This document shows, in pieces, positions 1 through 56,500 of a stretch of DNA of 64,000 bases; the first letter of the stretch is position 1, and each line of letters opens with the position of its first letter. The translations under genes and the position numbers were made by a program. Source of the stretch: Rhizophagus irregularis (taxonomy: Eukaryota; Glomeromycota; Glomeromycetes; Glomerales; Glomeraceae); the NCBI RefSeq assembly GCF_026210795.1, contig NC_089430.1:2480001-2544000 (forward strand), written 5' to 3'. The notes under the pieces were generated by a model that worked only from the letters and a program-made list of their open reading frames with translations, did no database searches and had not been told where the DNA came from.

Positions 1-1030
1 GTATATATTTTGGTTTATTCTTTCTGTCGTTATCTTTATTTTATTTTCGTTATTTTTTTTTTCCTGCGCCACCTTCCTGCGCATTTTGGAAATTTGAAAA
101 ATAAACCAAAATTGATTTACCCCCTCCAAATGATCATTATAGTCATGTGATTGATCTTCCATTTCTTATATACGTATATACATTGTTCATTTTAATTTAT
201 ATTTGATCACGTTTTCAATATTTTGGGCAAATTCCTGGACTTCGATTTGGATTATATATGAATTCTCCTTTTGGTTTTATTATCTCTGCTGCCGATATTG
301 AAATGGTTTTGTTCTTTACTAACCTTTTGTAGTCGATGCCGGGGAAGGGTTCTCCAAGTTGCGTTCTATTTTAAGCTTTGCTAAAGACCAACAGTTCTTT
401 CATACTGAAAAATCCGTCTTTGATCGCTGAGAATAACCGTGATATGGTATTGAGGGCCAAGAGCTTGTAACGGCTATTGTTTTTGTTTTTGTTTTTAAAT
501 TTTTCCATTATTTGTAGTGGTGTTTTATGGTTTTTGTTTGTTTCTTTTATAATCCGATCTATGGTTTTCTTTTTATGTGTATTGTTTTTATTTTCTTTGA
601 ATTTCATCTTTACTTAATTAGGTTTATCCTATGAGTATTCCTTTCCTTTTTACATAGTTATTCTTCATAGTTTAACTTTTGTTCTACTCCCCTTACAAAA
701 TTTTATGTAAGGATTAATGGCACGTTTAGATTTACCGGTTGTCCAATCCTGTTTAGCGTTCTTTATGAAGGTTAGGTGGGAAGTAAATCTTACGTACAGT
801 AGCATTTACTTGGTTTAAAATATAGCTTTGGGAATGATGCTTTGGGTTATTCAGTTTATAGTCTTTAGTTTTACTTTAGTTTATTCTCTGAATAGTCTGT
901 AGTGATACTGTTATGTTGCTCTTACTTTTATATCGTGCTATTTTAATGTTTGTAAGTTAATATTGAAATTCACTATTTTAAATAAAGTTTGTGGATATCA
1001 TGCCTTGTTTGCCTAGTTTTTGACCAGTAA
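1..1030 (+). repeat. 3' tail of an upstream non-LTR retrotransposon plus AT-rich sequence
   Basis: No gene is supported here. The last 24 bases (1007-1030) are identical to the last 24 bases of retrotransposon copy A (6511-6534); both contain CCTAGTTTTTGACCAGTAA and sit just downstream of an AATAAA-like signal. I infer that this stretch ends in the 3' UTR of a related element whose body lies mostly outside the window or has diverged. How far the element reaches to the left cannot be judged by eye. Confidence 0.45.
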
Positions 1031-1463
1031 GGTCCCTAAAGATTTGGAAACTTTAACCCGACATTATCGGTTTTTAAATCGCCTAATGCATTCAATACGT
1101 CTGTTGCGCAAATATCCTTCAATTTATTCTACTGTTCACGAATACAAATGGTCCATTCATTTGATTAGACTTCAAAACATTCTTCACTTATATAAGTAAG
1201 TGTTTACTTTCATTCCTACTCTACCTTCATCTCTCTCATCATGTCAACAAGATGATTTTAAATCACTTCTTGATGTTTTATCCAATATCTCCAAATCCTT
1301 ACAGGGATTTCACTTGCTTCAAGAAAAAAAATTTCAAGACTCCTCCATCCGTGCTCGTTTGGATGATAGAAATAATAACTTTGAAACTGACCTTTCTTCT
1401 TTTATCGATTCAGCGCTTTCTCGCTCTTGTCGCTGTATCACTTTGGATCATGTCTTTCTTGAC

Positions 1464-2324
1464 TAGAGCTCCGCAACCTGACCCGACAGATCAGGTGACC
1501 CGACGGGTTGACCCGAAATATTCAGGTCAGGTCATCAAATTCATGACCTGACACGGGTCGGGTCAGTGCTGGTCGGTACCCGACCTGACCCGTTGACCTG
1601 ACATATATTTGGGTCAAATAAATTAAATAACGCCAAAACTTATAATGATTCTGGCGTTTTTACATGTACAATCGAAAAAAAATGCCGAAACTATCAGTTT
1701 CAGCGTTTTTACATGTAAAATCAAAAAGAAAAACACCAGAACTAATTATTCCGGCGTTTTTACATGTAAAATCAAAAAGGAAAACACCGGAACTAATGAT
1801 TCCGGCATTTTTACATGTAAAATCAAAAAAAAATGCCGAAACTATCAGTTTCGGCATTTTTACATGTAAAATCAAAAAAAAACACCGGAACTAATGATTC
1901 CGGTGCTTTTACATGTAAAATCAAAAAAAAAAACGCTGAAACTACCAGTTTCGGCGTTTTTACATGTAAAATCAAAAAGAAGAATGCCAGAACTAATTAT
2001 TCCGGCGTTCTTACATGTAAAATCGAAAAAAAACGCCGAAACTATCAGTTTCAGCATTTTTACATGTAAAATCAAAAGGAAAAACACTGAAATAAATAGT
2101 TTTGGCGTTTTATATATAAAAACAAAAGTAAAACAAAACGTTTTTTTACAATATTTAATAATAAAACTTCGGGTAACCCGAGTTACCCGAAGTGACCCGA
2201 ATACTTTCGGGTCAAATGGGTCAGGTCGGGTCAGAACGGTTTACCTGACCCGACCTGACCTGAAAAAAAATTTCGGTTCAGGTTAACCAGGTAACCCGAC
2301 CGACCCGACCCATGCGGAGCTCTA
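1464..2324. mobile_element. hAT-like non-autonomous element inserted in copy A
   Basis: The ends are perfect 12-bp inverted repeats TAGAGCTCCGCA, flanked by the 8-bp direct repeat TTCTTGAC (1456-1463 and 2325-2332). Removing the element and one repeat restores collinearity with retrotransposon copy C. An 8-bp target duplication with TAGAG-type ends is the hallmark of hAT transposons. There is no transposase, so it must have been mobilised in trans. Subterminal regions (1475-1615 and 2165-2315) are dense in alternating ACCCGACC and GGTCAGGT motifs in both orientations, which could be transposase binding sites (inference). The centre is the hairpin minisatellite described separately. Confidence 0.85.
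1640..2115. repeat. Palindromic minisatellite inside the hAT-like element
   Basis: About nine tandem units of roughly 51 bp. Each carries the palindrome TTTTACATGTAAAA and a second hairpin of two alternating types: GAAACTATCAGTTTC, or GGAACTAATGATTCC. An A-rich stretch separates the two. Open reading frames on both strands here come from the repeat and are not genes. Confidence 0.85.
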
Positions 2325-5300
2325 TTCTTGACCACCCTACTCGGCCTCAGCTTTTAACTGATCCTAAGGACATAGATGATGCTGTTGTTAACCATTTTCA
2401 AAACTTTGTGCCTATAAAGTCCACTCCTCCTACTTCTATCGATGCATTACCTGATAGATGGTCTTCTGCCTATCAACCTATAGATGATGTATCCTCCTCC
2501 ATCTACGATTCTATAATAAATCCCCCTACCCTTGACGAATGGTTATCCACTGTATCCCCACTACTTACGAAATGCTCAAACATCTTGGATCTCATACCTC
2601 AGCTTTACTCCTTATTCTAATTCAATCATGCCTCTCCAAAGCTGATATTCCCGACTTATGGCGTCAAGCAATGGTCTTTCCCATTCCCAAACCTCACGAA
2701 TGGAAGTGTCAATTAAAAAACACTCAACCCATCACTTTACTTGAAGTGATTAGAAAATCTCTTGTCAAACTTTTCTATAATTGCCTTTCTTCTATTTTGG
2801 CTTCACATGATGTCCTTAAAGGTGGTAACTTCGCTAGTCTACCTGGTGGTTCTTGCCACGACCCTATTATTACTCTAGAATCTATTATCCATGATGCCGA
2901 TGTCAACAAAAATCCACTTTGGATTCTTTCCCAAGATATCTCTAAAGCTTTCGACTCAGTCGACCTAACAATGTTACGTTTCGCTCTTGAACGTATATGC
3001 CTTCCTGCTTCTGCAGTCAAATTTATCCTTTCACTTTCATGAAACGCACTAATAGCGTTTTCACTGCTCATGGATCTACTCCTGCTTATAGGGTTCGCAT
3101 TGGTATTGACCAAGGCGAAGTTATCTCTCCTCTTCTGTGGGTTATTTATATTGATCCTTTACTCACTGTTTTGAAGAATGAATTGAAGGACCCTTATGTT
3201 CTTTCAGCACCATCCTTAATTGCGTCTCAAGTACCCTCCCCTGATTTATGCATTAATAATTTAGTGTTTATGGATAATTTGACTCTTATTTCCTCGTCAA
3301 AAGCTGGCATGGAATTTATGTTATCCATTACAGAAGAATTTTAACACTTCTGCTAATCACAACAAATATGTATTGATTACCAATTCGTTACCTTTAACTT
3401 CCAATTCCACTCTTTCCCCAGTTATTTTTAATTTAGAATTATCCTCTTTAAATAGAGTTCCTTCTATTATTATTACTCCTATCTTTATGATGACTTCTTT
3501 TCGTTTTTTAGGTGTTTAAGTTTAACATTAAAAGTTCCAAAGATTTCGTTAGGAAACAACTCAAACGCGAATGTGATTCCTTCGCCATGACAATCTGACC
3601 TGCAAAGCTCTCTGCCAAACAAGTTGTGTATTTACACAATGCCATCCTTGAATATCGGATGCAAGTTACCCACCTGTCAGAATCTGACTGCCACCTAATA
3701 ATGAGAAGTATTCGATCTGTAGTGAAATACAAAGCTAATTTTTCCCGTTATCTTCCCAACCCTATTTCAACGACAATGTCATATTACTAATTTATTTTTA
3801 ATGGCTAATTCTTATTCTTCCTTTATGCAATTTCTTTTTATATATAGAATGCGTTTACTTCAATTTTTATTTTTGATTCCTATTTCTCCTTTTTTGATTA
3901 AGGACTGGTCTATATGGTCCTCTCTCTTCTTTCAAAAAGGATTATATTGCATGCACTATTGCTCTTTTGAATTCTACTCCCTTCCGGTTACTCCAAATTT
4001 AACTGTCAAAGCTCCCTAATTTATCTTATTCGAATGCATGTCACCTAAAGCTTTTAAGGCTTACTACTCCATCTTGCGTAAGTGACAGCTGTTCTATCTA
4101 TCTCAGCTTGTTACTCCACAAGGCACCCATTTAATTTCTTGGAAGGCCTATTATGAAAATTTGATTGGAAAACGCGGCTATGGTCACATTCCTTATTGGT
4201 ATAAAGATATCCAGCGACAAACTACCATTCCCGACTCTAATAATTGTCTAGTCGATGAATATATCCTGCCTATATCTGCGGATGATTCTTCATATTTAGA
4301 GCTTGAATCTTGTCTTTCTTCTCCTCCTACTACCATGAACTGGATTGTCACGTTGGACAATTTTGGTTCTCCCATCTTCGGTAAACAACTGTTAGTCCAA
4401 GCGGGACAGGGTACCTGCACCATTGTACATTGGATTTCTGCTAATTGCGAATCTTTGCCTGGCAATATCATTAAGCTTACTCCTTGCCCTGGATGTGCTG
4501 CTCATGTCCCTTTACCTCCTTCGAAAAAGCGGAATGCTGAATTAACTTGTTGCACACCGAACGTCTCTCTACAACATTCGCTCATCCTATTTACTATTAT
4601 TGAACGGATTAGATGCAATACTACTGCAGTGACTTCCCTTCTTACTTGGGCTGATATTGAAGATGGTGTTCGTCTTCATTATAATAGATGGGACATTGTT
4701 CCTGATTTTTCTCCTGAAGATGCCATTGTGGCTCCAATTACTTCTACCACTATTGAGTCCTCAGCTGCTGCTGTTTTTGCTAACTCCCCATTAACTCCTA
4801 CTGCGGATTCACGTTATATCTTTTTTACCGATGGGTCTCTTATCAACTTAGGAACTACTGACGTTTCTATGGGCTGGTCTTGGATGCAAATTGTACCAGA
4901 TGCTGGCTTTCCCAACTCTATTGCTACTTATGTACATGGCATTATCCAGGATAATCCTTCTTCCTCTTGAGCTGAAGCTGCTGCTATTTATGCCGTTTTA
5001 ACCATTTCTCCTTGCAACTCAGAAGTTACTATTTATACTGACTCGCAAACTGCCATTGATGGCCTTCGTGGTTGCTCTTCTTCTATTTATTCTAATAGCC
5101 GACTCTATTACAAAACTACGAACTTTGAACTCTGGGCTATTATTGAACGTACCATCTCTTCCAAAAACTTAACTGTCCTTCCCATTAAAGTGAAAGCACA
5201 CTCCGGCAATTATTTGAATGACTTTGCCGATTTCTTAGCCAATACTGCTCATACTTCCTCGTCCAGTATTTTGATTTCTGGCTCGGATCTTGCCTCCGCC

Positions 5301-10799: not shown

Positions 10800-11660
10800 A
10801 TATATAATCCTTTATAATTCAGTTAACAAATTAATAATTTCATGACAGAAAAAAAATGAATATATAAAAAAGGGATGAAATGAATAATGAATAATGGAAA
10901 AAAACAATGTAAAAAATAAATTGAAGTGAAAAGATAATGAAAAACAAAAATGGGAGTAAAATGGAATGATGTAAAATGAAATAGAATGATGGAGATAATA
11001 AAAAATGAAATAGAATAATAGGATGATGTAAACGAAATAAGATGATAAAAATGAAATGGAATGTTGCAAAACAAAATAAAATGATGAAAGATAATATGGA
11101 GTGATATAAAGTGATAAAAAATGATTTAGAACGATATGAAATGATATGGAGTAATATGAGATGATGAAAAATGATATAGAGCAATATGAAGTGATGAAAA
11201 AAATGATATGAAGTACTAATGTTGTGCCCCAAATCTCAATATGCTCCAAATTGATGATAATCATCGATGATTACTATATGTGAAAAGTGATGTTTTGAAA
11301 ATTCTTGAGGCATTATAAAGATGGGCTGATAATTTAGGCCGATCATTGATTTGGAGCAATCGTCAACTTGGGGCACAACACTAATATGGAGTAATGAAAA
11401 ATGATATGGAATAATATAAAGTAATGAAAAATGATATGGGAATAAAAGTGACGATAATAAACAAAAAAGATAATTAAAAATAAAATGGAAGCAAAGGAAA
11501 TGATAGAAAAATAAAATGGAGGCAAAGGGAATAATGAAATAATAAAAAACAAAAGAAGCAAAAAAAATAATAGAAAATAAATGAAAAAGGTGTGAAAATG
11601 AAAAGAGAATAAAGTGATGATAAAAAATAAAAGAAACTGTTAGTATCATTTTCAATAAAG
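10800..11660. repeat. Degenerate (GATGAAAT)n-like simple repeat tract
   Basis: Imperfect repetition of short words such as AATGATATGGA and GATGAAAAATGA, interrupted by the 159-bp element at 11221-11379. The long minus-strand reading frames (Phe, Ser, His, Ile rich) are a product of the repeat, so no gene is called. Confidence 0.75.
11221..11379. mobile_element. Short terminal-inverted-repeat element (159 bp)
   Basis: The ends are GTTGTGCCCCAA and TTGGGGCACAAC, a perfect 12-bp inverted repeat, flanked on both sides by ACTAAT (11215-11220 and 11380-11385). The element sits inside a simple repeat, which makes the borders stand out. The target duplication could be read as 6 bp, or as 4 bp (CTAA) with 13-bp ends, so the superfamily is left open. 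Confidence 0.75.
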
Positions 11661-12300
11661 AAAATAATAAAATAGCAAAAATACTAGTAATAAAAATAGA
11701 TCTTACCTTGAACCTCTTAAAGTTATTTGAAGTTGTTTTCTGAAAAACAAGTTAACAAATTAATATAAGAGAAAAAAAACATCAAATTAGTGAAGTAATA
11801 AAAAAATTTTACCTTAAGAAATTCCAGCCATTTTGGAAATAATACTACAAAAAGCAAAAAAACAAAATATATGTTACAACTACTACATGTTTGTGTAATA
11901 TAAAATTACTTGATAAATTTTACCAGGGTAAAATTTAAAATTTTAATGCATTGCAGATCTATCCCAGTAAAATTCACTGAAGGTGAATGTAAATTAATCT
12001 ATAATTTATTTAAATTTTAAACTTTAGAAAAGCGTAACTAAAATTATATATATTGCCTAAATTATTTTAAGCTGCCATAATTATAAGTAAAATAAAGTAA
12101 ATTATATATAAACTGAATGAATTACAGCATCCCAAATGAAGACCCTGAAGTTTTATCAAAAAGGATATCTAATATTTAAAAAACATTGCAATCACATGGA
12201 CGTTATGTTTAGACCACCTACATAAATAACCATTTACAATTGTGTGACCACATTGTGTACAAAAATCTGATCTTGATATTTATATATATATAACACGTCA
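11661..12300. other. AT-rich spacer with a partial fold-back copy
   Basis: No gene seen. Positions 12040-12138 are a shortened relative of the 7228-7408 fold-back element (shared GCTGCCATAATTATAAGTAAA and GAATTACAGCATCCCAAAT), with one arm lost. Confidence 0.6.
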
Positions 12301-12495: not shown

Positions 12496-13316
12496 CCCAC
12501 CTGTATGTGAAACTGAAATGCCAAAGTGCTAAAGTAGCCAAAGAAAGAACTGGAACCTAAAAGGAAATAAGTTAGAAAACAAATATAAACAAAGAGAAAA
12601 ATCCACTTTAGAACCAAAGTGCCAAAGTTTTTGAAGAAAAAACCTGGACCTAAGAAGAAAGAAGAGTTGGTTAGAATGAAAAAAATAAAAAAAAAAAAAC
12701 AAACCAAAAAAAAATAAAAAAGATATACCTTTGAACCGAAGAGCTAAAATGCTAAAGACTGGGACCTAAGAACAGAGAGAAGAGTTGATTAGAACAAAAA
12801 AACGTAAAGGTAATAAAATAAAACAAATAAAAGTGAAAAAAGACATACCTTCAAACCGAAGAGTTGAAATACTAAAGAACCAAGATCTAAAAACAAAGAA
12901 GAGTTAGTTAGAATAAAAAGAATAAAAAGAACAAAGAAACAAAATAAAAAATGAAAAAAAAGTTTTACCTTCAAACTGAAGAACCAAAATGCTAAAAAAT
13001 CGGGATCTAAGAACAGAAAAAAGTTGGTTAAAACAAAAAGAACGAAAAGAACAAAGAAATGAAATAAAAAAAAATGAGAAAAAAAGACGTACCTTTGAAC
13101 TGAAGAGCCAAAATACTAAAAAACTGGGACCTAAGAATAGAGAGAGTTGGTTAGAATGAAAAGAATAAAAAAGCAATGAAATGAAACAAAAAAAGTGAAA
13201 AAAAAAGACTTACCTTTGAACCAAAGAGCTGAAATGCAAAAGAACCAGGATCTAGAAAGAAACAAAATTAGAACAAAGTGAAAATGAAAAAAAAGAACAA
13301 AAAATAAGAACCTACC
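12496..13316 (-). repeat. Exon-like cassette array A
   Basis: Seven to eight tandem units with a period near 120 bp, read on the minus strand. Each unit has a pyrimidine-rich stretch ending in TAG (TTCTTAG, CTTTCTAG, TTTTAG), a block of 37-38 nt with the pattern (A/G)TCC.G.TTTT...TT.AAG, and then GTAAGT, GTACGT, GTAAAA, GTATGT or GTATAT. The last unit (12500-12560) has a longer block ending CAG before GTGGGT; one unit (near 12608) has a weak donor. Hand-splicing gives stops in every frame within a few blocks, so it is unlikely to code for protein. The long minus-strand reading frames here are repeat products. Confidence 0.7.
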
Positions 13317-13555
13317 TGAAAGTAAAGATGAAATGAATATATTTATCTGTGAATTAATTACAGTTTTAACATTATGTCTGTAAAAATACTGATGCAATAC
13401 CATATTGTATTTTTACAGTCGTATTGAATTTATACAGCCAAAATTGCCAAATTTATCGAATTGTCAATGATTTATGCAAATCCAGTACAGGAAAGTTAGA
13501 TTATCAGACAGATTGTATAATATGAATCATCTGATGATCTCTTTTTTCGCTGTAT
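13317..13555. promoter_or_regulatory. Candidate divergent start region between arrays A and B
   Basis: This unique 240-bp interval separates minus-strand array A from plus-strand array B. On the minus side, a short open stretch ending CTTTCAG before GTAGGT (13312-13403) could be a first exon. No diagnostic TATA or CCAAT box is convincing; the call rests on position only. Confidence 0.25.
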
Positions 13556-14170
13556 TAAAGATTTCCAGACAAAAATTATGACTGGGTTTTTGAAATTAAG
13601 GTAAAGAACTAAGGAAAAAGTTTTTTAAAAAAAAATGTTAATAGTTTATTTTTTTCATTTTGTAGGGTTGCCGGACAATAAGCATAATTGAACTCTTTGA
13701 ATTTGAAGTAAAGAAGGATTGGAGAAAGATCTATTTTAATAAATTTATTTATTTTTTCTTTATTGTAAGATTGCGGATGAAAAACATGACTGGACTTTAG
13801 GAATTTAAGTGAAAGATAAGGGGCTGAGCCACTGAGGGGAAGGTTTTTTGTTATTTTTTTATGTTAATAAATTTAACTAATTTATTTTTTATTTTTTGTA
13901 GTAATACTGAACGAAAAACATAACCAGATTTATAATTAAGGTAAAGGAGAACTGGTGAAAGTTTTTCGTTAATTTTTTCAATAAATTTAATTAATTTAAT
14001 TAATTTTTCTTTTTTGTAAGATTGTCGGATTAAAAAATATGACCAGATTTTTGTAATCAAGGTAAAGGACGTTTTGTTATTTTTTATTTGATAAATTTAA
14101 TAATTTATTTTTTTATGTAGAATTTCCAGAAAAAAAATCACGACCAGAATTTTATAATTGAGGTAAGGGA
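13556..14170 (+). repeat. Exon-like cassette array B
   Basis: Six plus-strand units at about 13566, 13667, 13771, 13899, 14020 and 14119. Each has T-rich sequence ending in TGTAG, TAAG or AAAG, a 38-42 nt block of the type ATT.CCGGA.AAAAA.ATGACCAG, and then GTAAAG, GTGAAA or GTAAGG. The A/T-rich filler between blocks is 60-85 nt. The architecture matches array A but the sequence differs and the direction is opposite. Confidence 0.7.
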
Positions 14171-14214
14171 GAATCAAAAAAATCTTATTTTCTTTTTTTC
14201 TTAATAGTTTTGAT

Positions 14215-14620
14215 ACAGACCAATTCTGTGCTAAAATACAAGTTTTTCTAATATATACAAATAAGTTGAAAGAAGTTCAAGATTTAATTGATAAACTTAA
14301 TCTTAAAAATCCTTTAACTGCTGATGAATTTATTTAATATAATGAATTTGAACTTACAGAAATAATATTTAATAAAGAAATTTTAAAAGTAGTTCTTTCC
14401 AATAATCATAAACAAGAGGTAGAAGAATTAAATTCTGATTCTTTACCATCTATTTATTACTCATAGTGAAGTCATTAAATATTATAATAAGGTAATTTTA
14501 TATTTAGAGCAACAAGAGGATAAATTCAATATGAAAAAAAAAAGAAATAAGATGCATTAAAAAACTTAAGAAGGAGATGTTAAAATAACATTTTATTTTT
14601 GCAAGACAAATGAATCTTAA
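14215..14620 (+). pseudogene. C-terminal remnant of a Tigger/pogo-like (CENP-B-type) DDE transposase
   Basis: The plus-strand reading contains KNPLTADEFI (near 14307), a stop, EEILKVVL-like sequence, and after another break KVILYLEQQEDKFN (near 14492) followed by a lysine-rich stretch. Fungal Tigger/CENP-B-type transposases end with an ADEFI helix region and a final FLEQQ...KKL segment, and I place it by that resemblance. The catalytic domain is absent and there are several stops. It lies between convergent arrays B and C. Confidence 0.5.
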
Positions 14621-14639
14621 TAATTTACTAGGAAACGGA

Positions 14640-15300
14640 AATCGTTGTAAGTCCGGAGCGAAAGATTTTGTACAAAAATCCAAATATCTTTAAAAATTCA
14701 ATTTGTACAAAAAATCTGGCGTCCCTTAAAAAAATAAAAAATGAAACGTTAGAAACATTTTTTTAAAGTTAAACAAATAAGAAAAGCCCCTCTTCACAAT
14801 TTACCTTTAAAAGTCCGGCATATACAAAAAACCCGCGTTCCTAGATAAAAAAAATAAAAATGAAATGTTAAAAACGTTTCTTTAAAGCAAACAAATAAAA
14901 AACAACTTACCAGTCAAGAAATCCAGAAACTCTAGGATAAAAGTAAAAAATGAAACGTTAGAAACGTTTCTTTAAAGTCAAACAAATAAGAAAAGCCAAT
15001 TTACCTTTAAAATCTGGCGTGTACAAAAATCCCGTGTCCCAGAAATAATAATAAGTGAAACGTTAGAAACGTTTCTTTAAAGCAAAACAAATAAAAAAAC
15101 AACTTACCAGTCCAGTATATACAAGAAATCCAGAAACCCTAGGAAAAAAGTAAGAAATGAAACGTTAGAAACGTTTCTTTAAAGCTAAACAAATAAAAAA
15201 CCCTCTACTTCCTAATTTACCTTTAAAGTCTAGTATGTACAAGAAATCCAGAAACCCTAGAAAAAGAATAAGAAATAAAACAAAAACATTCCTTTGAAGT
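14640..15300 (-). repeat. Exon-like cassette array C
   Basis: About six units of 100-115 bp, read on the minus strand: TCCTAG or TTCTAG, a block beginning GGTTTCTGGATTTCTTG and ending ACTGG or CTTTAAAG, then GTAAGTTG or GTAAATT. Four units have both splice-like boundaries intact; one has CTGG in place of the AG acceptor and the last lacks a GT. The filler contains the near-palindrome GAAACGTTAGAAACGTTTC in almost every unit, also found in array E. Confidence 0.7.
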
Positions 15301-15573
15301 CAATTAAAAAAAAATATACTCTCTAGACGAAACCAAACAAAAAAAGAGATTATCAGATAATCATGTTTATCATAAACTTATTATGATTATTACACTTGTT
15401 TATTTTTGAAGTAGTACAAAATTTCAATGACACAATCTGTGTGGACCAATCAGAAATGACGCGTGCAGACAAACGGACATCGCCACGTGATCCAATATGT
15501 CATTAAGGTTCATAAACATATATAGTCCTTCGCTTTGCTCTGGACAATAATATAATAATTGTATTATATTTAA
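15301..15573 (+). promoter_or_regulatory. Candidate promoter between arrays C and D
   Basis: The interval contains GACCAATCAG (CCAAT box core 15446-15450) and, 70 bp further, a TATATA at 15519-15524, both upstream of plus-strand array D. It is less A/T-biased than its surroundings (15430-15500). CCAAT and TATA boxes are usual in fungal promoters, but neither is proof of activity. Confidence 0.3.
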
Positions 15574-16647
15574 GGGAGAAATCGGCACTTAACGAGAGAA
15601 ATTTAATAATGCCGATTTATGCAAATTATTACTAAAAATGGCTAGTACGCAGTTTTTGTTAAGGTGACGTCTTCTTAAATGATTATTAATTAAAAATGCT
15701 GAATGCGGTAACGGATAATGTCAATCCTAGCCAAGCCACTCACGAAGTTTAGCGTCATCAAAGTTCAAACTTTTTGACTTTACTCTGGAAGAACGCGCCA
15801 TTCCAGCTATTATTTTAATAGGCTTGTACGTTAAGTAAAATATTTTAACCTATATTTTATTTTTATTTAGTTTTATTTAATTTATAAATTTTAGTTTATA
15901 ATTTATTTATTGGTAATTTTCTTGTTTCTTAATAGTGAAAATATATTTATCTTCTCCATTTATTTTAGTTATTTAGGCTTAAAATTAGGAGTCTTAGTAG
16001 TCTCAGTATGGCTTTAATAATATTCCTTTTATTTTTTTTTTTTTAGGTTTCATTTTTTTGGACTTGAGTGCTTTGGAATTCTTGGAAAGGTAAGTAAACA
16101 TACCTTTTTTAGTGAAAATTGTTATTAGTTACTAATATTCCTTTTGTTTTTTTTGTAGATTTTGTTCCTATACGTCTTAAATTTTGGATTACTTTAAAGT
16201 AACTATGCGAATAGAATTTTTTAAGGCTGTTAATAAAAATTTTTAATTACTAACATGTTTGTTTTTTTTTCAGTAGATCTCAGTTTTAGGTACCTTGGGA
16301 CTCTGACATGTGAATAGTTTTTTTATATTTAAGGATGTTAATAGATCATTTTTTTCGTTAATTTAATAGGTTTTGGTCCTTTTCTTTATAAATTATGTAA
16401 AAAATAGTGTTTTTTAAAAAATTAAATGGTTTCTAATGGTATTTATGTACATATACCATAATATTGATCTTGTAAATATCCCTCTCAGCCAGAAAAATTA
16501 TTTTATACTGTCTTTTTTTGGTTTATTGAAAAAAACTTATAATAAAGAACGCGGCATTCCAAAAAACGGTTTTTTTATTAATACAAAGCCCGTAAATTTA
16601 ATTATAGAATTTTGACGATTTTATCCTGCTGAATGGCGATCTTTCCC
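15574..16647. mobile_element. Possible TTAA-flanked element carrying array D
   Basis: The ends read GGGAGAAATCG on the left and, on the complement of the right end, GGGAAAGATCG; both abut TTAA (15570-15573 and 16648-16651). TTAA duplication with short inverted ends resembles piggyBac- or Kolobok-type transposons. No transposase is seen in the 1074 bp. The ends are short and imperfect, so chance is possible. Confidence 0.4.
15960..16330 (+). repeat. Exon-like cassette array D
   Basis: Four plus-strand units with blocks starting near 15968, 16047, 16160 and 16275. Acceptor-like ends are TTTTAG, TTTTTTAG, TTTTGTAG and TTTTTCAG; block lengths are about 37, 43, 40 and 36 nt; donor-like starts are GTATGG, GTAAGT, GTAACT and GTGAAT. 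The last three are spaced 113-115 bp apart. Confidence 0.6.
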
Positions 16648-16679
16648 TTAAATATATTATAATTTGCATTTATTTATAT

Positions 16680-17095
16680 AAATTTACTTTAAAATATTTA
16701 TTGCAATTTTCGAATTATTGAGAAAAAAAAAATGTTTTTTTTCAAAAACTCACGAAAACAGTAAATTTTATTGCATTTTTAGATAGAGAAGGTGTGATTA
16801 TAACCTGAAAATGTTAATTTTAGAGCAGAAAACTTAATTTTTCGGTAAGTTTGCATATAAGCGACTTTTGAGATTTTGTGTAACCTAAAAGTTCTCTATA
16901 AGTAAACTTACCTAAGAGTTGGATTTTTCATCCTAAAATTAAGGTTTTCATGTTATAATCGCACCTTCTCCTTCCAAAATACAATAAAATTTACTGTTTT
17001 CGTGAGTTTTTGAAAAAAATCATTATTTTATTTTCCTATTTAAACTGTTTTTAGTAATTTGAAAATTGCGATAATGAATTTTTAATAAAAATTCA
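16680..17095. repeat. Fold-back element of about 415 bp
   Basis: Inverted arms of about 180 bp share CAAAAACTCACGAAAACAGT with its complement at about 16998-17017, and GAGAAGGTG.GATTATAAC with its complement near 16950-16970. The spacer is short. The outer arms share TTGCAATTTTCGAATTA-like sequence. No coding potential or clear target duplication is seen. Confidence 0.7.
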
Positions 17096-26624: not shown

Positions 26625-26696
26625 TTCCGCATCGGGGAATCGAACCCCGGCCGTCGCGGTGAAAGCGCGAAATCCTAACCACTGGACCAATGCGGA
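26625..26696 (-). tRNA. tRNA-Glu (anticodon UUC)
   Basis: The minus strand folds as a complete 72-nt cloverleaf with no intron. The acceptor stem TCCGCAT pairs with ATGCGGA, followed by discriminator A. The D arm reads GTCC...GGAT. The anticodon stem TCGCG/CGCGA carries loop CTTTCAC with anticodon TTC, and the T arm reads CGGGG-TTCGAAT-CCCCG. Box B (GGTTCGAATCC) is canonical. Downstream T9 completes a pol III unit. Confidence 0.97.
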
Positions 26697-38847: not shown

Positions 38848-39135
38848 GACAACTCAAGAGGAAGAGGAACTTCAAATACTTACAATCGGAAGAGGAAATT
38901 CAAATACTTACAACACCAGGGCGACCTTTAAACGCGTATTTAATAACAACTCAAGAGGAAGAGGAACTTCAAATACTTGCAACGGAAGAGGAAATTCAAA
39001 TACTTACAACACCAGGGCGACCTTTAAACGCGTATGTTACTTTAATAACAACTCAAGAGGAAGAGGAACTTCAAATACTTACAACGGAAGAGGAAATTCA
39101 AATACTTACAACACCAGGGCGCGTATGTTACTTTA
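38848..39135 (+). repeat. Minisatellite, about three units of roughly 107 bp
   Basis: Units start near 38848, 38944 and 39046 and contain AACTCAAGAGGAAGAGGAAC, two TTCAAATACTT words and ACACCAGGGCGACCTTTAAA. Each unit has an internal near-duplication. A plus-strand frame through it reads RGRGTSNT/GRGNSNT repeats but has no start context or neighbouring exon. Confidence 0.75.
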
Positions 39136-46530: not shown

Positions 46531-46537
46531 CTTAATA

Positions 46538-47059
46538 CATCAGGAAATTTGTTTAGGCGTAATTTAGTGTAATGTTTCGAAGGTGGTGTAAAATTTCGAA
46601 ATATTACACTAAAAACGTAATATTACAAAAGTTTACGCTCTTAAATTTGAATAATTATAGTAATTTAAGAATATCTCGCTATCTACTGATCCAATCAAGA
46701 CGATCTATAGCTCATTGGAATCAGCTCATCAAGACGGATCGAATGGTAGTAAAATCGTATCTTTACGTTCGATAGATGATTTTCTATTAATTTAAAACTT
46801 TACTGCATACTATAGAGCGTTCTATCAACTGTAGAAATGCGATTTTACTACCATTCGATCCGTCTTGATGAGCTGATTCCAATGAGCTATAGATCGTCTT
46901 GATTGGATCAGTAGATAGCGAGATATTCTTAAATTACTATAATTATTCAAATTTAAGAGCGTAAACTTTTGTAATATTACGTTTTTAGTGTAATATTTCG
47001 AAATTTTACACCACCTTCGAAATATTACACTAAATTATGCCTAAACAAATTTCCTGATG
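46538..47059. mobile_element. Near-perfect fold-back element with TA target site
   Basis: Inverted arms of about 215 bp are almost identical (for example TACTACCATTCGATCCGTC and its complement) around an asymmetric spacer of about 85 bp. The ends read CATCAGGAAATTTGTTTAGG on both sides and abut TA (46536-46537 and 47060-47061), as expected for a Tc1/mariner-mobilised element. A 67-residue reading frame in the left arm has no homology I recognise. Confidence 0.85.
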
Positions 47060-47061
47060 TA

Positions 47062-47530
47062 GAAGTCTGGTAACTAAAAAAATGAAAAAAAGAAACGTTA
47101 GTACGTTCCTTTAATACAATTAGACACCAATACCCTCTCCCATATACCTAAATCTGGTTCTTCCAAGTTCATAGGAGTCCGGTAACTAAAAAAATGAAAA
47201 AAAGAAATGTTAGTACGTTTCTTTAACACAATTAGACACCAATACCCTCTCCCAATATACTTTACCGGGTTCTTTCAAGTTCCTAGAAGTCTGGTAACTA
47301 AAAAAATGAAAAAAAGAAACGTTAGTACGTTTCTTTAACGCAAAATAGACACCAATCTTTCTCACTATACTAAATCTGGTTCTTCCAAGTGTTCCTAGGA
47401 GTCCGGTAACTAAAAAAATGAAAAAAAGAAACGTTAATACGTTTCTTTAATATAATTAAACGTCTACCCTCCCCAATATACTTTACCGGATTCTTCAAAA
47501 TTCCTAGGAGTCCGGAGAAATAAAAAAAAA
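47062..47530 (-). repeat. Exon-like cassette array E
   Basis: Four to five units of about 115-120 bp. On the minus strand they read TTTTTTTAG, a 37-39 nt block beginning TTACCGGACTCCTAGGAAC and ending CCAGATTTA or CCCGGTAAA, then GTATATTGG or GTATAGTG. The filler holds AAAGAAACGTTAGTACGTTT, a near-palindrome shared with array C 32 kb away. The fold-back element abuts the first unit. Confidence 0.7.
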
Positions 47531-48375
47531 TTTTTTTTTTAAAAAAAAATGTGTATTTTAGATTATCAACAATTAGTTAAAAAACTGATCAGAGCTTAAC
47601 TGAATAAGGAAATTGCGAAACTATATCATAATATCATATGATATACTGTGCAGTTTCAGCTTACCGAAGCAAAAATATCATTCATGATATGAATAATCAT
47701 ATCTATTAAGAATGATGCCTTACCGAAACCTAGTTTTAGCAGTTTTGGCAAGCATCCGGCGTCCTAAAATAATTTTTTTAAAAAAAATTAATTATCTGAT
47801 CTCCATAAATATATTTATATTAAATATAAAATATCTAAAATTATTAGAGCTAAAAAAATATAAATAGAAGGTTATTATATTCCTATACGCCTTCTATTTA
47901 AAAATCTTTTTTCCTAAGCTTACCAGTCTGAAATGGCAATCCGGAAGCTAAATATACCTTTTATTTTGTATTTTGTACATGTTTGTTAAACTCTTGTAAA
48001 AGAAAAAAAGAAAAAGACTAGTAGACTTAAAAAAACAATGATTGTTTATTTTATAGTTTAAATAGTTTAATTTATTAAATCCACAGCATCGTCATTAATA
48101 ATAAAAATGATCTATATATGAAAATACCAATATCTCTTATATTTTACTGATATTTCTAATATAAATATCAATGACCTATCAGGTTACTGATAGGTTTACC
48201 GATACCTTTATAACATTTCTTTAGAAATGATGGTTGATATCAATAAAAAATCATTGTCATATCTAAGTTAATGATACGTATATTGATTTTTAATATGTTT
48301 CTATCGCGCATATCAGGTTTATAATATCTGACCAATATGCCATAATAGCTTATGACCCGATATGCCATCATTCGA
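47531..48375. other. AT-rich spacer, no gene seen
   Basis: No coding or RNA signal. Small inverted words such as ATATCATATGATAT are present near 47628, without a clear element border. Confidence 0.55.
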
Positions 48376-49295
48376 CCAATGTATACCAATAAGGAGTACG
48401 GCCAGGGCCACGTCGTCCAACCAAATTATCATAGTAAGCCTTCCAAGAAATTAAATGAGTTCCTTGAGGAGTAATAAGCTGAGATAAATAAAACAGTTGT
48501 CGTTTACGCAGGATGGGAAAATAGGCTTTGAAGGCTTTAGGCGTCATGCATTCAAATAGGGGAACGCGTCCGTTTAACAGAGATAAATTCGGAAGTTTCG
48601 AAAGTTGAGTATGAAGCAAACGAAAAGGAGTAGAAGTTAAGAGAACAATAGTGCATGCGATATAATCTTTTTTAAAAGAAAAAAGAGAAAACCATATAGA
48701 CCAGTCCTTAATTAAAAGGGGAGAAATAGGAATCAAAAAGTTATATTGAATTAAACACAATCTATAAATAAAAAGAGATTGGATAAAAGAAGAAGAAGAA
48801 TTAGCCATTAAAAATAAATTAGTAATATGACATTGTCGTTGATGAGCAAACAAATTAATCAAGCCCGAGGCGAGATAAAAATAGAATAGGATTGGGTAAA
48901 GAACGAGAAAAATTTGCTTTGTGCTTTACAACAGATCGTATACTTCTCGTTATTAGGTGGCAGTCAGATTCGGACAAGTGTGTAACTTGCATCCGGTATT
49001 CAAGTTTTGGTATAAGAATAGCATTATGTAAATACACGACTTGTTTGGGAGAGAGCTTTGCTGGTCGGATAGTCGCAGCAAAGGAGCAGCATTTGCGTTT
49101 GAGTTGCTTTTTGACAAAATCACGGGAGCTCTTAATGTTAAACCAGACACCTAAAAAACGAAAAGAAGTTGTCATGAAAATTGGGGTAATAGTAATGGAG
49201 GGAATACTATTTAAAGAGGATAAATCCAAAGTAAAAGTAATAGGGGATAAAGTGGAATTCGAAGTCAAAGGTAACGAATTGGTAATTAACACATA

Positions 49296-50621
49296 CAGAG
49301 GGCGATCAAAATTATCCGGCCACTTTGTTTTGGCAAATTTATGCCGATCATGACGTAATAACATGATGTAATCAATACATTATTTTGTATTTATAATCAT
49401 GATAAACATACCTCTTACTTAACTTCTAGAACTAGAACATAAAAATATGAAGCCACTTACTCAAAAACGCGTGGCGCAATTGTTTATGGACGTAATTGTG
49501 GACAATCAAGTCGTACAATTGCTAAACAGTTGGGATGTGGGAAAACAACTGTTAATGATATCTTAAGCGCTTTCATGAAACACACTTCCTTAACGCCAAA
49601 AAAACAAACTGGTCGTCCACCCCGCCTTGGCAATTCACCAAAGGCTCAACAAGAAAGCAAAGAATTTGTTCAAGAAAATGGTGAAAACTGCCGACTTTGC
49701 ACGAAAAAGCTTGCTACAGTATGGACAGCACGTACAGAACAACCTGTTTCTGCTATTACTATACGCCGTAAGCCCGTAACCTTAAGAAAGTTGGGTTAAC
49801 AGCTTGTATACCTCGTAAAAAACCTGCACTGTCAGAAGCACATTGTCAGGCTCGTCTTGAATGGGCCCATGCGCATGAAAATTGGAGTGCAAGAAAATGG
49901 AGACGTGTGCTTTTTTCTGATGAAAGCACTTTTACACAGTTTCAACAAGGACGTCGGGGAAAGGTATGGCGTGAACCTGGGGAAGAATTAAATCCTGACT
50001 GTATTTCAGTTACTGTAAAGCATAGTCCTAGCAAAATGTTTTGGGGGTGTTTTTGTTTTTCCTGAATGGACTTGGACCAATTGTTCCATTAAATGGTTCA
50101 GTTACTGGTCAAACACACGCTATAACCATTAAGGATTATGTTGTACCTACTTTACAAAGGCATTTTCCACAAGGTAATGGGATTTTCCAAGAAGATAATG
50201 CCCCACCACATCGTTCAAAGGTTGCTACGGCTGCACGCGAAAACGCTGGAATTGTGGGGTGCTTGATGGCCTGCCCAAAGTCCTGATCTCAATCCAATTG
50301 AGAACCTTTGGGCAGAAATGAAAATGATGGTTCGCCGTCGTACACCACCACCATCTAATATTAAAGTGCTTGAAAAATATGTTAAAGATGCGTGGAAAGA
50401 TATTCCTCCGGAATATTATAAAAAATTGGTTAATAGTATGCCTAAGAGAATTGAGGCAGTTATTGCCGCAAATGGCAATAGAATTAATTATTAATTTTTA
50501 CATAATTTAATAAATTAAATCATAAATAAAAACATTGATTTTAAATTTTTATTTTTTTTTCATATTTTTATATAAAAATTTTTTATTTTTAAAGTGGCCG
50601 GATAATTTTGATCGCCCTCTG
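49296..50621 (+). mobile_element. Tc1/mariner transposon in copy B
   Basis: A 1326-bp element with perfect 31-bp terminal inverted repeats beginning CAGAGGGCGATCAAAATTAT, flanked by TA (49294-49295 and 50622-50623). The matching site in copy C (about 62350) is uninterrupted with a single TA, an exact empty site. Size, ends and TA duplication are standard for Tc1. Confidence 0.95.
49448..50494 (+). pseudogene. Tc1-type DD34E transposase, frameshifted
   Basis: The transposase would cut the element ends and paste it at TA. The reading is broken at least four times: near 49480 (between the start region and the helix-turn-helix TIAKQLGCGKTTVNDIL), 49795, 50055 and 50265. Catalytic residues survive in separate frames: Asp in VLFSDEST (near 49918), Asp in FQEDNAPPH (near 50197) and Glu in DLNPIENLW (near 50298). 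Spacing between the last two is 34 once the one-base shift is allowed for, so the type is DD34E. The C-terminus ends at TAA 50492-50494. The near-perfect terminal repeats despite a dead gene suggest it moved with help from an intact relative. Confidence 0.9.
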
Positions 50622-53598
50622 TATTTGTTATGATTGGCAGAAGTGTTATTGATTTGGTAAAATTCTTCTGTAATGGATAACATAAATTCCATGCCAGCTT
50701 TTGACAAGGAAATAAGAGTAGAGTCATCCATAAATACTAGATTATTAATCTTCAAATCAGGAAAAGGATTTGAAGAATCAATTAAAGACGGTGTAGAAAG
50801 AACATAAGGGTCCATCATTTCTTTCTTCAAAACAGTAAGTAAGGGATCAATATAAATAACCCATGAGGAGATATAACTTCGCCTTGGTCATACCAATGCG
50901 AACCCTATAAGCAGGCGTAAATCCATGAGCAGTGAAAACGCGATTCATGGTATTTCGCGAAAAGAAAGGATAAACTTAACAGCGAGGCCTGAAGACATAT
51001 ACGTTCTAAGGCGAAACGTAACATTGTTAGATCAACTGAGTCAAAAGCTTTAGAGATATCTTGGGAAAGAATCCAAAGTGGGTTTTTGTTGACATCAGCG
51101 TCATAGATAATAGATTCTAGAGTAATAATAGGGTTACGGCAAGAACTACCAGGAAGACCAGCGAAGTTACCCCCTTTAAGGACATCATGTGAGGCCATAA
51201 TAGTAGAAAGGCAATTATAAAAAAGTTTGACAAGAGATTTTCTAATCACTTCAAGTAAAGTAATAGGACGAGTATTTTTTAATTGACATTTCCATTCGTG
51301 AGGCTTGGGAATGGGAAAAACCATTGCCTGTCACCATAAGTCGGGGATATCAGCTTTGGAAAGGCATGCTTGAATTAAAATGAGGAGCAAAGCCGAGGTA
51401 CGAGATCCGAGATGTTTGAGCATTTCATAGGTAATCATGGAAGGACCAGAGGCTTTACCGTTAGGAGTGGAAGAAACGGTGGATAACCATTCATCAAGGG
51501 TAGGGAATTCATTAAAGAATCATAGATGGAGGAGGACACATCATCCATAGGCTGATAGGCGGAAAACCATCTATCAGGTAATGTATCGATAGATACAGGG
51601 GGAGTGGATTTTATAGGTACAAAGTTTTGGAAATGGTTAACAACAGCATCATCTACGTCCTTAGGATCAGTTAACAACTGGGGTTGAGTAGGATGGTCGA
51701 TGAAGACACGGTCCAAGGTGATACGGCGACGGGTACGTGAGAGCGCTGAATCGATAAAGGAAGAAAGGTCAGTTTCAAAATTATTATTTCTATCGTCCAA
51801 GTGAGCACGGATGGAGGAGTCATGGAATTCTTTTTCTTGGAGTAAATGAAATCCCCGTAAGGATTTTGAAAGATTGGATAAATCATCAAGAAGTGACTTG
51901 AAATTGTCTTGTCAACATGATGAAAAAGAAAAGGGTAAAATAGGAATGAAAGTAAAAACTTTCTTGTATAATTGAAGGATGTTTTGAAGTCTATGCAAAT
52001 GTATAGACCACTTATGTTCATGAGCAACAGAATAAGTTGAAGGGTATTTGCGCAATAAACGTATCGAATGCATTAGACGATTTAAAAACCGATAATGTTG
52101 AGTTAAAATTTCCAGATCTTTAGGGACCTTAGAAGTATAATTGTTGCCAACAATAGAAGAAGGTAAAGTAGCGTTGGCAGCTTTGAGGATTCGTGATTGA
52201 AGATATTTGCACATTTGATTGATATGCCAGGAGGAAAAGGTTGAAGGCAGGACGTCACATAAAGCATCAGCTTTGTCAGCGAATTCCGTCCATTGAATAT
52301 CAGTAACAGAATCAAATTTGAAGACGCAACGGGTTTGGCGCTTAAGTTGTCGAGCACGAGCCAATTTGGTAGAGCATAAAGTAAAGACATATCATAGTAT
52401 GTGATGACAGGGTTATGATCAGATGTGCAAATATCTTGAGCATTAAAAATACAAGCAGTAAGAGCAAATCCTTTGAGAAGAGGGCGAGGACCATATAATC
52501 AACACGAGTAATGTGATCATTGCGATGAAAGGTACCTAAAGAGTCGGAAAGATTAATAGGTGTAAAGTCTTCATAGCCGTGAGAAAGGAGATGAAAAAGT
52601 AATCGGTGTATATGTTTTGAAGCAATTTGGGGTTGATTAAAATAAATAGGATAATATTTATCTAAATGCATATTGAAATCGCCACAAACAGCGTGATAAA
52701 AACCAGCTTGTTTAGTAAGGGTGAGTTGTTGAATAAGCAAATCAATAGTGTCGGAGCGCAAAACACTTTCAGCAGGAGGAGGGATATAAATAACAAAAAT
52801 ACGCAATTTAACATTGCCTTTGAAATATAAATCAACAGAAAGCAATCGTGAAGAATGGGATTTAAAATCTTGTACATGTGAAGCAAGAGAATTTTCTATA
52901 AAAAGGGAAACACCACCAGAAGAAAGAATTTGTTTAGAAGTATCCAAATTCGAAGAAAACACAGTATAATTAGAAAGACGTTTGGATAAAAACTTCATTT
53001 GTTTAGGGTGGAGATGAGTATCAACGATACCACCAAAGGAAATATGTTTTAAGGAAAAGAAAGAGGAAATTTCATCTAATTTGGTCTGACCATGCATTTT
53101 AAGGCCATTAACATTAAAAGAAGAAATATTAAATGAATTGGGGATAGGAGAAGTGTTACTAGAAGAAGAAAATAAGGATTCATGTGAAAAAATTTCAGTA
53201 ACATTATCAGGGTTGGGAGGGTTTCGTACAAAGGTGTCATAATTAAAATTATTGTCTGACATTAAAACACAATGATAAATACAGTCGGGAAGATAAAATT
53301 TGAAGAAGAAATTTAAACAGAAAAAGCTGAATCAGCTTGTTCCAGGGGAGCACCACCAATGGAGCTAATGAATTGTTTGATATGACCAGTGAGTTGGTCC
53401 AATTTACTTTCAATAACGACTCTACTATTTTTGAGATCGTTAATTTCTTCTTGCGTGGAGGAGACAGGGGTAAAAGAAGGAGCATTTGGGGAAGGTGAGA
53501 AGGAGGAAGCGACGTGTTAGGAACAAGAATAGTAGGAGGCGGAGGTCGCGTTAAAATACTTCTGGGGGGTAAAGGAAATTTAGCGGAAGGACTGAATA

Positions 53599-56500
53599 TT
53601 AAAAAGCGAACGTGGATACAGGGGCATCTTCTTGCATGAGATCCAAGTCAGGCTCATTAGGTGTAGGAAGCGGATCAAGGCCAAGGTGTGATTCGATGCG
53701 GGTCATCCGATGGTCAGCAAGTTCAAGAGCGGAAATGCGTTTGTGGAAATTAGCAACTTCGCATTGCAGTTCGCGCAAGAGGTTTAAAATATTATTAGCA
53801 TCATCAGGAGATAATGCAGAATTGGGAGTTTGTCGGGGCAAAGGACGTGCTGTAGAACGGGAGGAGGAAGAAAAGGAGACTGATCGTTCTTTGCTATTAC
53901 GCCAAGCACGTTGGGAAGCGTTAAAATTTGGTATGTTATGATTTTTATCATGATTAGTGCGGTCATGGGAAATATTATTATCACGTCCAGAATTGGAAGC
54001 AGATCGATCTTTAGATTTAGAGCGAGATCGGGAGCGAGATCGTGCATTGGCAGTATTAGAATTGGAGCGGCGAGGTTGATTGACATTAAATCGTTCTTTG
54101 AGTTTTGCAACAGGGTCGCGAGTGCGACTTCTACCTCTGGTTTGTTTGAGTAATCAAAAATTCGGAGCGCAACCTAATTTGCCAGCATCTGTGACAAAGT
54201 TTATTAGTATTATCTGAGGAGGACCAGAAAAGTACCTTGCTTTGGAAGCTGACAGTTTGTTCCATAGCAGCATCCATGGTCTCTTGGGAATTGAAAGTGA
54301 CATAAGCCCATCTTTTGGGTTTGTAAGAATTTAGAAAGTGGCACATTAACAGCTTTAGTGCCGAGGTTACGAGTAAGAGGAGCCAAGTTGATATCCTTAA
54401 CATTAGGAGGAAGCTGAGTGAGAGTGGCGACGTATTGACGGCACGCAGCCTTTTGATCCACAGTATAAAAACATGGAGTAATTCTGAGGCAGGTGGAGAA
54501 ACAGTACACAGCCAGGACTCCGGATATCTCCAAAACAGGTCATAAGTCACACTTTCGGGTAAACATAGCTTGAGCTTGAATTTTATTAATTAATGCCGAA
54601 GTGACTTTAGAGAAACACAGAGTGATCTAAAAAGCACCACAACAAGTGCAGAACTAATAGAAAAACAAAGAACAAATAATCTTCCAAAATTACATATAAG
54701 AAAAGCTAAGATTAAAAACCCCACTCTCTCTATATAAATAACTACGGCTACTCCCCCCAAATATATTTCAAAATGAGTAAAGTCGACTATACTATACGTA
54801 ACCCATCCAGCGCCATACCCACTCCTAGAATCGGTAAAGAACCTCCAAGCTACCATTAGCACTAGCAAAAACGCATAAAATTCAACTTCCCCTATTTGAC
54901 TACATACTATGGATAACAAACCTATTTCACAAAGACCTCTGGGAACTTTTTAGTATCGTGCAGTCCAGCCGATGGGGAACTTTTTAGTGTCGTGCAATCC
55001 CCGAAGGGACACTCACCTCATTGCGAACAATCCCAAACGGAGGACACCCACCTCATTGCGAACGATCCTTCGACCTAAGATCTACCTAGATAAGTCAATC
55101 CAATGATAGTCCAACATGTGACCACCATGATCAGCATACTATAAAAACTGCGGTACCCAACCTGTCACCCTCCTTATCACCCGAATGATGATCGATTTTG
55201 AAAATTGTAACACCAAGCCACCATGACGATCAAATTTTCCAGTATCCCCCCACCCCCCAAAGAAAATAAGGTTACACAGAAAAAAGCGACCAAGAAAAAC
55301 AAAAAGCAAAAAATAAAGACATAAACCTCAGGAAAACTCGAAGTGCAATGAGAAAAACCTGAGTAAAATTCACCAAACATACACCTCAACTCCGTCTCCT
55401 TATTTTAGAAGACTAACTCCCCAGTTAACAACATCAACTAGTAAGAAATACGTTGGTCAGGAGCTCCTTCCAAGAAATACCAGTCCGGCCTGCGAACCAC
55501 TTGGCCAGTTAGACTTTAAAGGCGTAGGAACCAAGACGCACTACTTTTCAACCTTTCAGAAAGCCCAGGGAAACATTCGTATGGAACTGCCATCTTACAG
55601 TATTATTGGTAACTCCAAGACTCATGATAACGGTCCTAACTCAATATAAGCTGTAAGGAGTTCGGGCGAAACTAAAGACCACTTTATATAATGTCAAAAA
55701 GTCCTTTTACTATCACTCAAGGCAAAAAATCCTCATATTTTTCATCCATAACTTCATGGGAAAAAATGGGCAGAGCCCAACGGGGGAGAAAGTACGATCA
55801 TCATCAAGTCACACTTTCGGCAGATTGGCCCATTTTCGGGGGAACAAAAATCGTTTTTTGTAAATATCTCGGCATCCAGTGATCCAATTTTGATGAACGT
55901 TTTTTTAAATTGTAGAGCTAAATGAGGGCTACAAAATAAAAAAAAGTTCATTAAAATTGAATTACTGGATGCTGAGATATTTACAAAAAACGATTTTTTC
56001 AGGCAAAGGGGTGTTTTTGGCCAAAAGTCCATTATGACCTTTATATTAGATATCCGGGGTCCTACACAGCCCATTGGTCGGTAAAACAAGCAATTGAATC
56101 GGCGTGATCATACACAATACGGGCTTGCTGGACTTTGGCATTAGGCCTGGAGAAGAGGCGGCAAGAGGTGATATTACCAAATTTTTTAAAATAAGCCATG
56201 AGGTTGTCTTTTTTAATGAAGAAAGGGATATCGGTAACTTGGATAGCCTGGAGATCTTCATTGGATCAGAGTTGGCGAGGGTCATGTGCATAAAAGATTA
56301 AGTCAGGGAACTCAGAATGAGTGGAACCAACGCACAAATCGCGTGCTTCAGCGGTATGGAAGTGGATAATGAGGCGTTTGGCTTCACCAGAGTCAGTCAT
56401 ACGCGCTTTTCCAGTAAATGACTCGTAAGTTTCTAAAAAAAGGTTATTAACAGCCTCAATAAGGGCTTTATTGGTAGGGAATTTCTTAAGAGATTCAGGG

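What the first reader, a model, noticed from the sequence alone, without database searches (positions are those of the whole stretch)
12496..16330. Divergent pairs of tandem exon-like cassette arrays
Four neighbouring arrays (A minus, B plus, C minus, D plus) are built from units of about 105-125 bp. Each unit has a pyrimidine/T-rich run ending in AG, a block of about 36-43 nt, then GTAAGT-, GTAAAG- or GTATGT-type sequence. Block sequences differ between arrays, but the acceptor-block-donor architecture and near-38-nt length recur in about 20 units. The order A<- ->B, C<- ->D gives two divergent pairs around unique 240-bp and 650-bp regions. Blocks are not multiples of three and spliced frames hit stops, which argues against a protein. 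Possible meanings are multi-exon non-coding transcripts, a splicing-dependent repeat, or expansion of an exon-intron unit by recombination.
Basis: partly seen in the sequence, partly recalled or inferred. Interest (0 to 1): 0.72.

Follow-up and report, generated by a model that had tools for sequence, protein, structure and literature searches.

The report
Tandem non-coding microexon arrays
A stretch of AT-rich, probably fungal, DNA holds rows of tiny repeated exons and introns whose splicing signals have been kept while the rest decayed, which suggests spliced RNAs that do not encode protein.

Summary
Arrays A(-), B(+), C(-), D(+) contain 22 exon-like blocks (21-56 nt) separated by intron-like stretches of about 50-93 nt; 13 protein-read introns of other genes in the window are 65-94 nt. 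Splice models from those introns recover B and A and an unreported fifth array, E(-), 47060-47528. The pattern beats column-permuted copies of the same repeats (Fisher P 1.6e-6; C alone 0.055). AG/GT survive in 48 of 50 cases against 31.6 expected from copy-to-copy decay. Branch-site-like CTRAY motifs precede 16 of 25 acceptors. Exons sort into families X (A, D) and Y (B, C, E), so the 'two divergent pairs' look like one bidirectional module X<- ->Y plus an inverted copy. Exon lengths ignore the codon frame, and stops interrupt four of five spliced arrays; C is open for 63 of 65 codons. Part of the copy variation is CG to TG/CA. Best reading: tandemly expanded, spliced, largely non-coding transcription units in once-methylated repeat DNA. 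Decayed coding microexon genes or foldback-type transposon arms are not excluded. No RNA data, own genome or relatives were available, so splicing itself is inferred.

The parts
12501..13251 (-). Array A (family X): 7 exons at 13214-13251, 13093-13130, 12969-13006, 12849-12886, 12729-12765, 12607-12649, 12501-12556; a possible leader exon at 13316-13346
13561..14162 (+). Array B (family Y): 6 exons at 13561-13600, 13666-13707, 13770-13808, 13902-13940, 14021-14061, 14121-14162
   Evidence: (top chain in window, score 39.1)
14688..15256 (-). Array C (family Y): 6 exons at 15221-15256, 15108-15138, 15005-15039 (acceptor lost), 14911-14931, 14805-14840, 14688-14724 (donor lost); introns with a GAAACGTT-TCT-AACGTTTC hairpin at the branch-site motif
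16047..16309 (+). Array D (family X): 3 exons at 16047-16089, 16159-16198, 16274-16309
47060..47528 (-).
   Evidence: C profile hits it, best E 2.8e-7
47724..47763 (-). Y-like exon upstream of E, donor GTAAGG
   Evidence: one of 29 motif-bearing candidates in the window, so weak alone
47924..47947 (-). Y-like exon upstream of E, donor GTAAGC; resembles C4
   Evidence: 5 of 1000 shuffles reach its score against C4
11707..11844 (-). Chain F of two exons (11813-11844, 11707-11739), the first Y-like
   Evidence: score 12.2; B profile hit 11864-11808 at E 0.56
13252..13560 (.). Spacer between first exons of A and B, inferred bidirectional start region
   Evidence: position between divergent arrays; promoter activity not tested
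15257..16046 (.). Spacer between first exons of C and D, inferred bidirectional start region
   Evidence: position between divergent arrays; promoter activity not tested
13519..13550 (+). Palindromic element (ATCATCTGATGAT) plus CTCTTTTTT before B, shared with C
   Evidence: score 49; 0 of 2000 shuffles
15350..15380 (-). Matching element (ATTATCTGATAAT) before C; differs from the B copy at symmetrical positions that keep the palindrome
14194..14640 (+). Broken reading frame between the 3' ends of B and C; resembles a pogo/Tigger-type transposase C-terminus from memory only
   Evidence: no Pfam match for three pieces

Best explanation
The arrays are tandemly expanded exon-plus-intron units of spliced, largely non-coding transcription units. 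Step 1 (shown by alignment): a unit of about 38 nt exon and about 75 nt intron was duplicated repeatedly; unequal exchange as the cause is inferred. Step 2 (shown by sequence): units carry a donor, in most cases a CTRAY branch-site-like motif, a T-rich tract and an acceptor, and the splice dinucleotides outlive other positions. Step 3 (inferred): two divergent transcripts start in each spacer, one through an X array and one through a Y array, and a microexon chain is spliced from each. Step 4 (supported by similarity): the A-B module also exists as an inverted copy, C-D. Step 5 (inferred): the units lie, or lay, in CpG-methylated repeat DNA, which would explain the CG/TG/CA variation. The role I think most likely is a source of spliced repeat RNA handled by the fungal RNA-silencing machinery, with selection acting on splicing rather than on a peptide; this last step has no direct evidence.
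For: Splice models from 13 unrelated introns put B, E and A as the three top chains in the window. Column-permutation P values combine to 1.6e-6. AG/GT kept in 48 of 50 versus 31.6 expected, Fisher P 1.5e-5. CTRAY in 16 of 25 array acceptor regions (A 6/7, B 2/6, C 4/6, D 2/3, E 2/3) versus 29 of 267 background AG sites and 3 of 13 reference introns. Intron lengths resemble reference introns. B has fewer gaps in exons than in introns, 0.05 versus 0.36 per aligned site. Exon lengths modulo 3 are 9/7/9 for 0/1/2. No excess of variable sites at one codon position in the three exon sets tested. Families X and Y; inverted collinearity. CpG-type variable columns and more transitions in exon than intron columns, P 0.0026.
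Against: No transcript evidence at all. Boundaries were drawn by eye, and copies are related, so they are not independent. C and E alone are not significant for AG/GT conservation (0.19 and 0.30); with the two E copies left out of that count E gives P 0.50. Array C reads open for 63 of 65 codons, although C3 lacks its acceptor. Exon identity exceeds intron identity only in A and E. The reference introns themselves rarely carry CTRAY (3 of 13). Direct-orientation scores were comparable to inverted ones in many tiles. Nothing here tests silencing.
Confidence: 0.45

Rival explanations
1. Decayed members of a coding, many-microexon gene family (orphan or effector-like): each exon once encoded a short repeated peptide, expanded in tandem, then lost frame and gained stops after CpG methylation.
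For: Array C is open for 63 of 65 codons as a repetitive FLDFLYILDFK-like chain (shuffle fraction 0.04). By eye, the two CCGGA-like motifs of C and some B exons lie 18 nt apart, in one frame. AG/GT are conserved.
Against: Exon lengths modulo 3 are random, 9/7/9; codon positions vary about equally; A, B, D and E have stops in all three spliced frames, with longest open stretches no longer than shuffles (0.24, 0.31, 0.75, 0.64).
Confidence: 0.25
2. Foldback-type DNA transposon: A-B and C-D are long inverted arms made of tandem repeats around a broken transposase; splice-like signals are a by-product or serve the transposon transcript.
For: Inverted arrangement X-Y...Y-X with a broken transposase-like frame in the middle.
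Against: No Pfam support for the transposase pieces; no clear termini or target-site duplication recognised; arms differ greatly in unit number (7 versus 3); no reason for AG/GT to be kept; E stands without an opposite array that I could detect.
Confidence: 0.2
3. Ordinary T-rich minisatellites in which splice-like words arise by composition.
For: Long T-tracts favour acceptor scores; C alone is not significant; 15 of 300 shuffled windows reach A's chain score.
Against: Column permutation keeps composition and copy relatedness, and still P 1.6e-6; eight other tandem repeats score at most 3.5; AG/GT conservation.
Confidence: 0.08

Closest known systems
Bicycle genes of aphids (many-microexon effector genes; Stern and Han 2022, PMC9168663, abstract and outline seen)
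   Same: Gene families better recognised by exon-intron structure than by sequence; the microexon character is recalled and from search listings
   Different: Bicycle genes encode proteins; here lengths ignore the frame and stops interrupt four of five arrays
SP7-like effectors of arbuscular mycorrhizal fungi (PMC11333574, section 6 and passages seen)
   Same: Probably the same fungal group; tandem imperfect repeats
   Different: SP7-like genes encode a signal peptide and hydrophilic repeats, with one conserved intron before the first repeat; no such peptide was seen here by eye and no signal-peptide program was run
Unclassified repeats and methylated orphan genes of Rhizophagus irregularis (PMC8647823, passages seen)
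   Same: That paper reports unclassified repeats over 24% of the genome left to be characterised, highly methylated orphan genes, and small RNA loci
   Different: The passages seen do not describe exon-intron tandem arrays; 'splic' and 'intron' have 0 occurrences in its main text
Foldback transposons with tandem-repeat inverted arms (recalled)
   Same: Inverted arms built of tandem units
   Different: No defined termini; the units here carry conserved splice signals
Stalled-spliceosome signal for RNAi in Cryptococcus (Dumesic et al. 2013; seen only as a reference entry in PMC7082362)
   Same: Would link intron-bearing repeat RNA to silencing
   Different: A mechanism in another fungus; untested here

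Membership tests
Spliceosomal exon-intron units | GT donor and AG acceptor at unit boundaries, better kept than other sites | tested here: met
   48 of 50 versus 31.6 expected; C and E alone not significant
Spliceosomal exon-intron units | Branch-site motif at a suitable distance | tested here: met
   CTRAY in 16 of 25 versus 29 of 267 background sites; weak in B (2 of 6)
Spliceosomal exon-intron units | Spliced transcripts | not testable with these tools
   no RNA reads available
Coding microexon gene family (bicycle-like or MEG-like) | Exon lengths or phases that keep one reading frame | tested here: not met
   lengths modulo 3 are 9/7/9
Coding microexon gene family (bicycle-like or MEG-like) | Open frame through the spliced exons | tested here: inconclusive
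   interrupted in A, B, D, E; open for 63 of 65 codons in C
SP7-like effectors | Signal peptide and hydrophilic repeats | not tested
   no signal-peptide program; no full-length frame in A, B, D, E
Foldback-type transposon | Long inverted arms with tandem repeats | tested here: inconclusive
   inverted homology of modules, weak and without defined ends
Foldback-type transposon | Transposase between the arms | tested here: inconclusive
   broken frame 14194-14640; no Pfam match
Known structured RNA family | Rfam match over the arrays | tested here: not met
   only one Rfam match in the window, the tRNA at 26625-26696

The most novel reading that the evidence does not exclude
A class of 'spliced satellites': tandem repeats whose selected unit is a working microexon plus intron, kept by selection on splicing itself and arranged as divergent X/Y modules that are copied and inverted around the genome. 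Their RNAs would feed silencing or other RNA-level functions instead of encoding protein.
Probability: 0.2. Interest if true: 0.8.

Novelty: new variant of a known kind. Interest (0 to 1): 0.52.

Why it matters
If confirmed, satellite-like repeats can be held together by splicing rather than by coding or by DNA binding, and part of the uncharacterised repeat fraction of such genomes would be multi-exon RNA genes that annotation pipelines miss. It would also be a natural test bed for how exon-intron units multiply and for whether intron-rich repeat RNA is routed into RNA silencing.

Tried and rejected
Tried without result: own-genome search (no genome held). Intron-motif and exon-motif scans of viral contigs (12, 46 and 0 stretches, one match each, as expected by chance; the loci were not read) and of genome contigs (6 bacterial contigs, one match each, not read). 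A reverse-transcriptase query to find contigs of the same organism in viral contigs (no relative). Rfam at gathering thresholds (only a tRNA). Pfam for the transposase-like pieces (nothing). Similarity of E's upstream region to the other spacers (not significant).

Considered and rejected or left open: intron-hosted snoRNA arrays (introns of 50-93 nt with no Rfam match). Homology of X and Y exons to each other: A-B is borderline at 12 of 500, A-C, B-D, C-D, D-E and A-E are not significant. Antisense likeness of E to A and D (14 and 6 of 500) is unexplained. A branch-site hairpin as a general feature: strong in E1, E2 and C2-C4 (z -2.8 to -5.5), absent in A, not better than shuffles in B, D, C5, C6 or E3. 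A-D homology from the D profile alone: it hits six of seven A units but also E units, so it is not specific. In one search direct-orientation scores equal or exceed inverted ones in many tiles.

Literature: ten searches. In the listings I saw no paper describing non-coding tandem exon-intron arrays in this kind of fungus; most hits were seen as listing only.

Full report
Setting. The window is AT-rich. It carries a kinase, an Nramp transporter and a Ulp1-type peptidase by Pfam, and an F-box-like protein just below its curated cut-off. It also holds a many-exon transporter gene (read by eye as MFS) and several reverse-transcriptase copies. From memory this looks like an arbuscular mycorrhizal fungus; no call named the organism and no whole genome was held.

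The arrays are real. Read on their sense strands, A, B, C and D give 7, 6, 6 and 3 exon-like blocks, each following a T-rich tract that in 21 of 22 cases ends in AG (C3 does not), and followed in 21 of 22 cases by GT (C6 is not). A fifth array, E, was found by Tandem Repeats Finder, by reading, and independently by the splice-chain scan. Two further Y-like exons lie upstream of E, and a short chain F lies beyond A.

More than chance. I took 13 introns of unrelated genes in the window whose boundaries follow from protein reading, built donor and acceptor models, and chained exons of 20-60 nt with introns of 45-110 nt. B, E and A came out as the three best chains of the window (39.1, 27.3, 27.2). 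In 300 locally shuffled windows the best chain averaged 19.5 and peaked at 33.1; none reached 39.1 and 15 reached 27.2. Because repeats inflate such scores, I also permuted aligned columns within each array, which keeps copy relatedness and composition: P was 0.009, 0.002, 0.055, 0.012 and 0.010 for A-E, Fisher 1.6e-6. Eight other tandem repeats scored at most 3.5, though several are much shorter.

Splice signals are kept. Within the arrays a typical dinucleotide is kept in 52-82% of copies, allowing a one-base shift. AG and GT at the boundaries are kept in 48 of 50 cases against 31.6 expected; Fisher over arrays gives 1.5e-5, carried by A, B and D. Two E copies, one with a lost acceptor and one cut by an insertion, were left out; with them E gives P 0.50. 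CTRAY motifs lie 10-50 nt before 16 of 25 array acceptors, against 29 of 267 comparable AG sites and 3 of 13 reference introns. In five introns (C2-C4, E1, E2) that motif sits in a strong hairpin.

Layout. Exon-only comparison with 500 permutations groups A with D (0 reach the score) and B, C, E with each other (4, 6 and 3 reach it). A-B is borderline (12) and the other five pairs are not significant. Profile search confirms C-E (best E 2.8e-7). The B and C ends of the spacers share an element (0 of 2000 shuffles reach its score) that keeps a palindrome by symmetrical changes. Tiles of A match D, and the B start matches the C start, in inverted order, although many tiles are weak and direct scores are often as high. 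I read this as one bidirectional module X<- ->Y and an inverted copy, with a broken transposase-like frame between them (no Pfam match).

Coding or not. Exon lengths modulo 3 are 9, 7 and 9 for remainders 0, 1, 2. Variable sites show no excess at one codon position in the sets tested: A exons 1-4, B, and five of six C exons. A, B, D and E have stops in all three spliced frames and open stretches no longer than in shuffles. C is the exception, open for 63 of 65 codons, a length reached by 0.04 of shuffles, although its third exon lacks an acceptor. A decayed coding origin therefore stays possible.

Decay. Thirteen column pairs alternate mainly between CG, TG and CA, 8 in exons and 5 in introns (no formal expectation was computed). 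Exon columns vary by transitions more than intron columns (67:39 versus 89:110, P 0.0026, columns treated as independent). This fits deamination of methylated CpG. In Rhizophagus irregularis, CpG methylation of transposons and of orphan genes is reported (PMC8647823, passages).

Mechanism. Shown: tandem exon-intron units, kept splice dinucleotides, two exon families. Supported: inverted duplication. Inferred: transcription from the spacers, splicing, methylation, and a role in RNA silencing. The silencing link rests on established work in other fungi (seen only as a reference entry) and not on data here.

Comparison. Coding microexon families share the structure but keep a frame, a feature tested and not met. 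SP7-like effectors have coding repeats and one conserved intron (PMC11333574, section 6). I rate this a new variant of a known kind: tandem exon duplication, but apparently non-coding and in paired modules.

Noticed in passing
46536-47061: Foldback element with 241-nt arms (97% complementary), bounded by TA on both sides, inserted at the end of array E.
   Followed up: partly
11220-11386: Small element with terminal inverted repeats GTTGTGCCCC and flanking ACTAAT on both sides, inside a pyrimidine/purine-biased repeat region.
   Followed up: partly
16720-17035: Foldback-like inverted repeat (60-nt arms, 92% complementary, with a further inner pair) just beyond array D.
   Followed up: no
57130-57416: Tight inverted repeat, arms 135 nt, 94% complementary, 17 nt apart.
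   Followed up: no
1625-2083: Tandem array of about 50/100 bp units, each with a GC-rich hairpin (CGCCGAAACT..AGTTTCGGCG) and no splice-like chain (score at most 0.7).
   Followed up: partly
38849-39121: Nested minisatellite (102-nt units holding 27-28-nt repeats) open in more than one frame.
   Followed up: no
15557-15601 and 16620-16664: 45-nt inverted repeat (76%) with ATATTTAAGGGA core on both sides of array D; may bound an element or mark start regions.
   Followed up: no
arrays A, D versus E: Exons of E resemble A and D exons in antisense (14 and 6 of 500 permutations); unexplained.
   Followed up: partly
1-5000, 48000-53600, 58100-63900: Several copies of one reverse-transcriptase element in direct and inverted orientation, 75-98% alike over the repeat pairs listed.
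   Followed up: no
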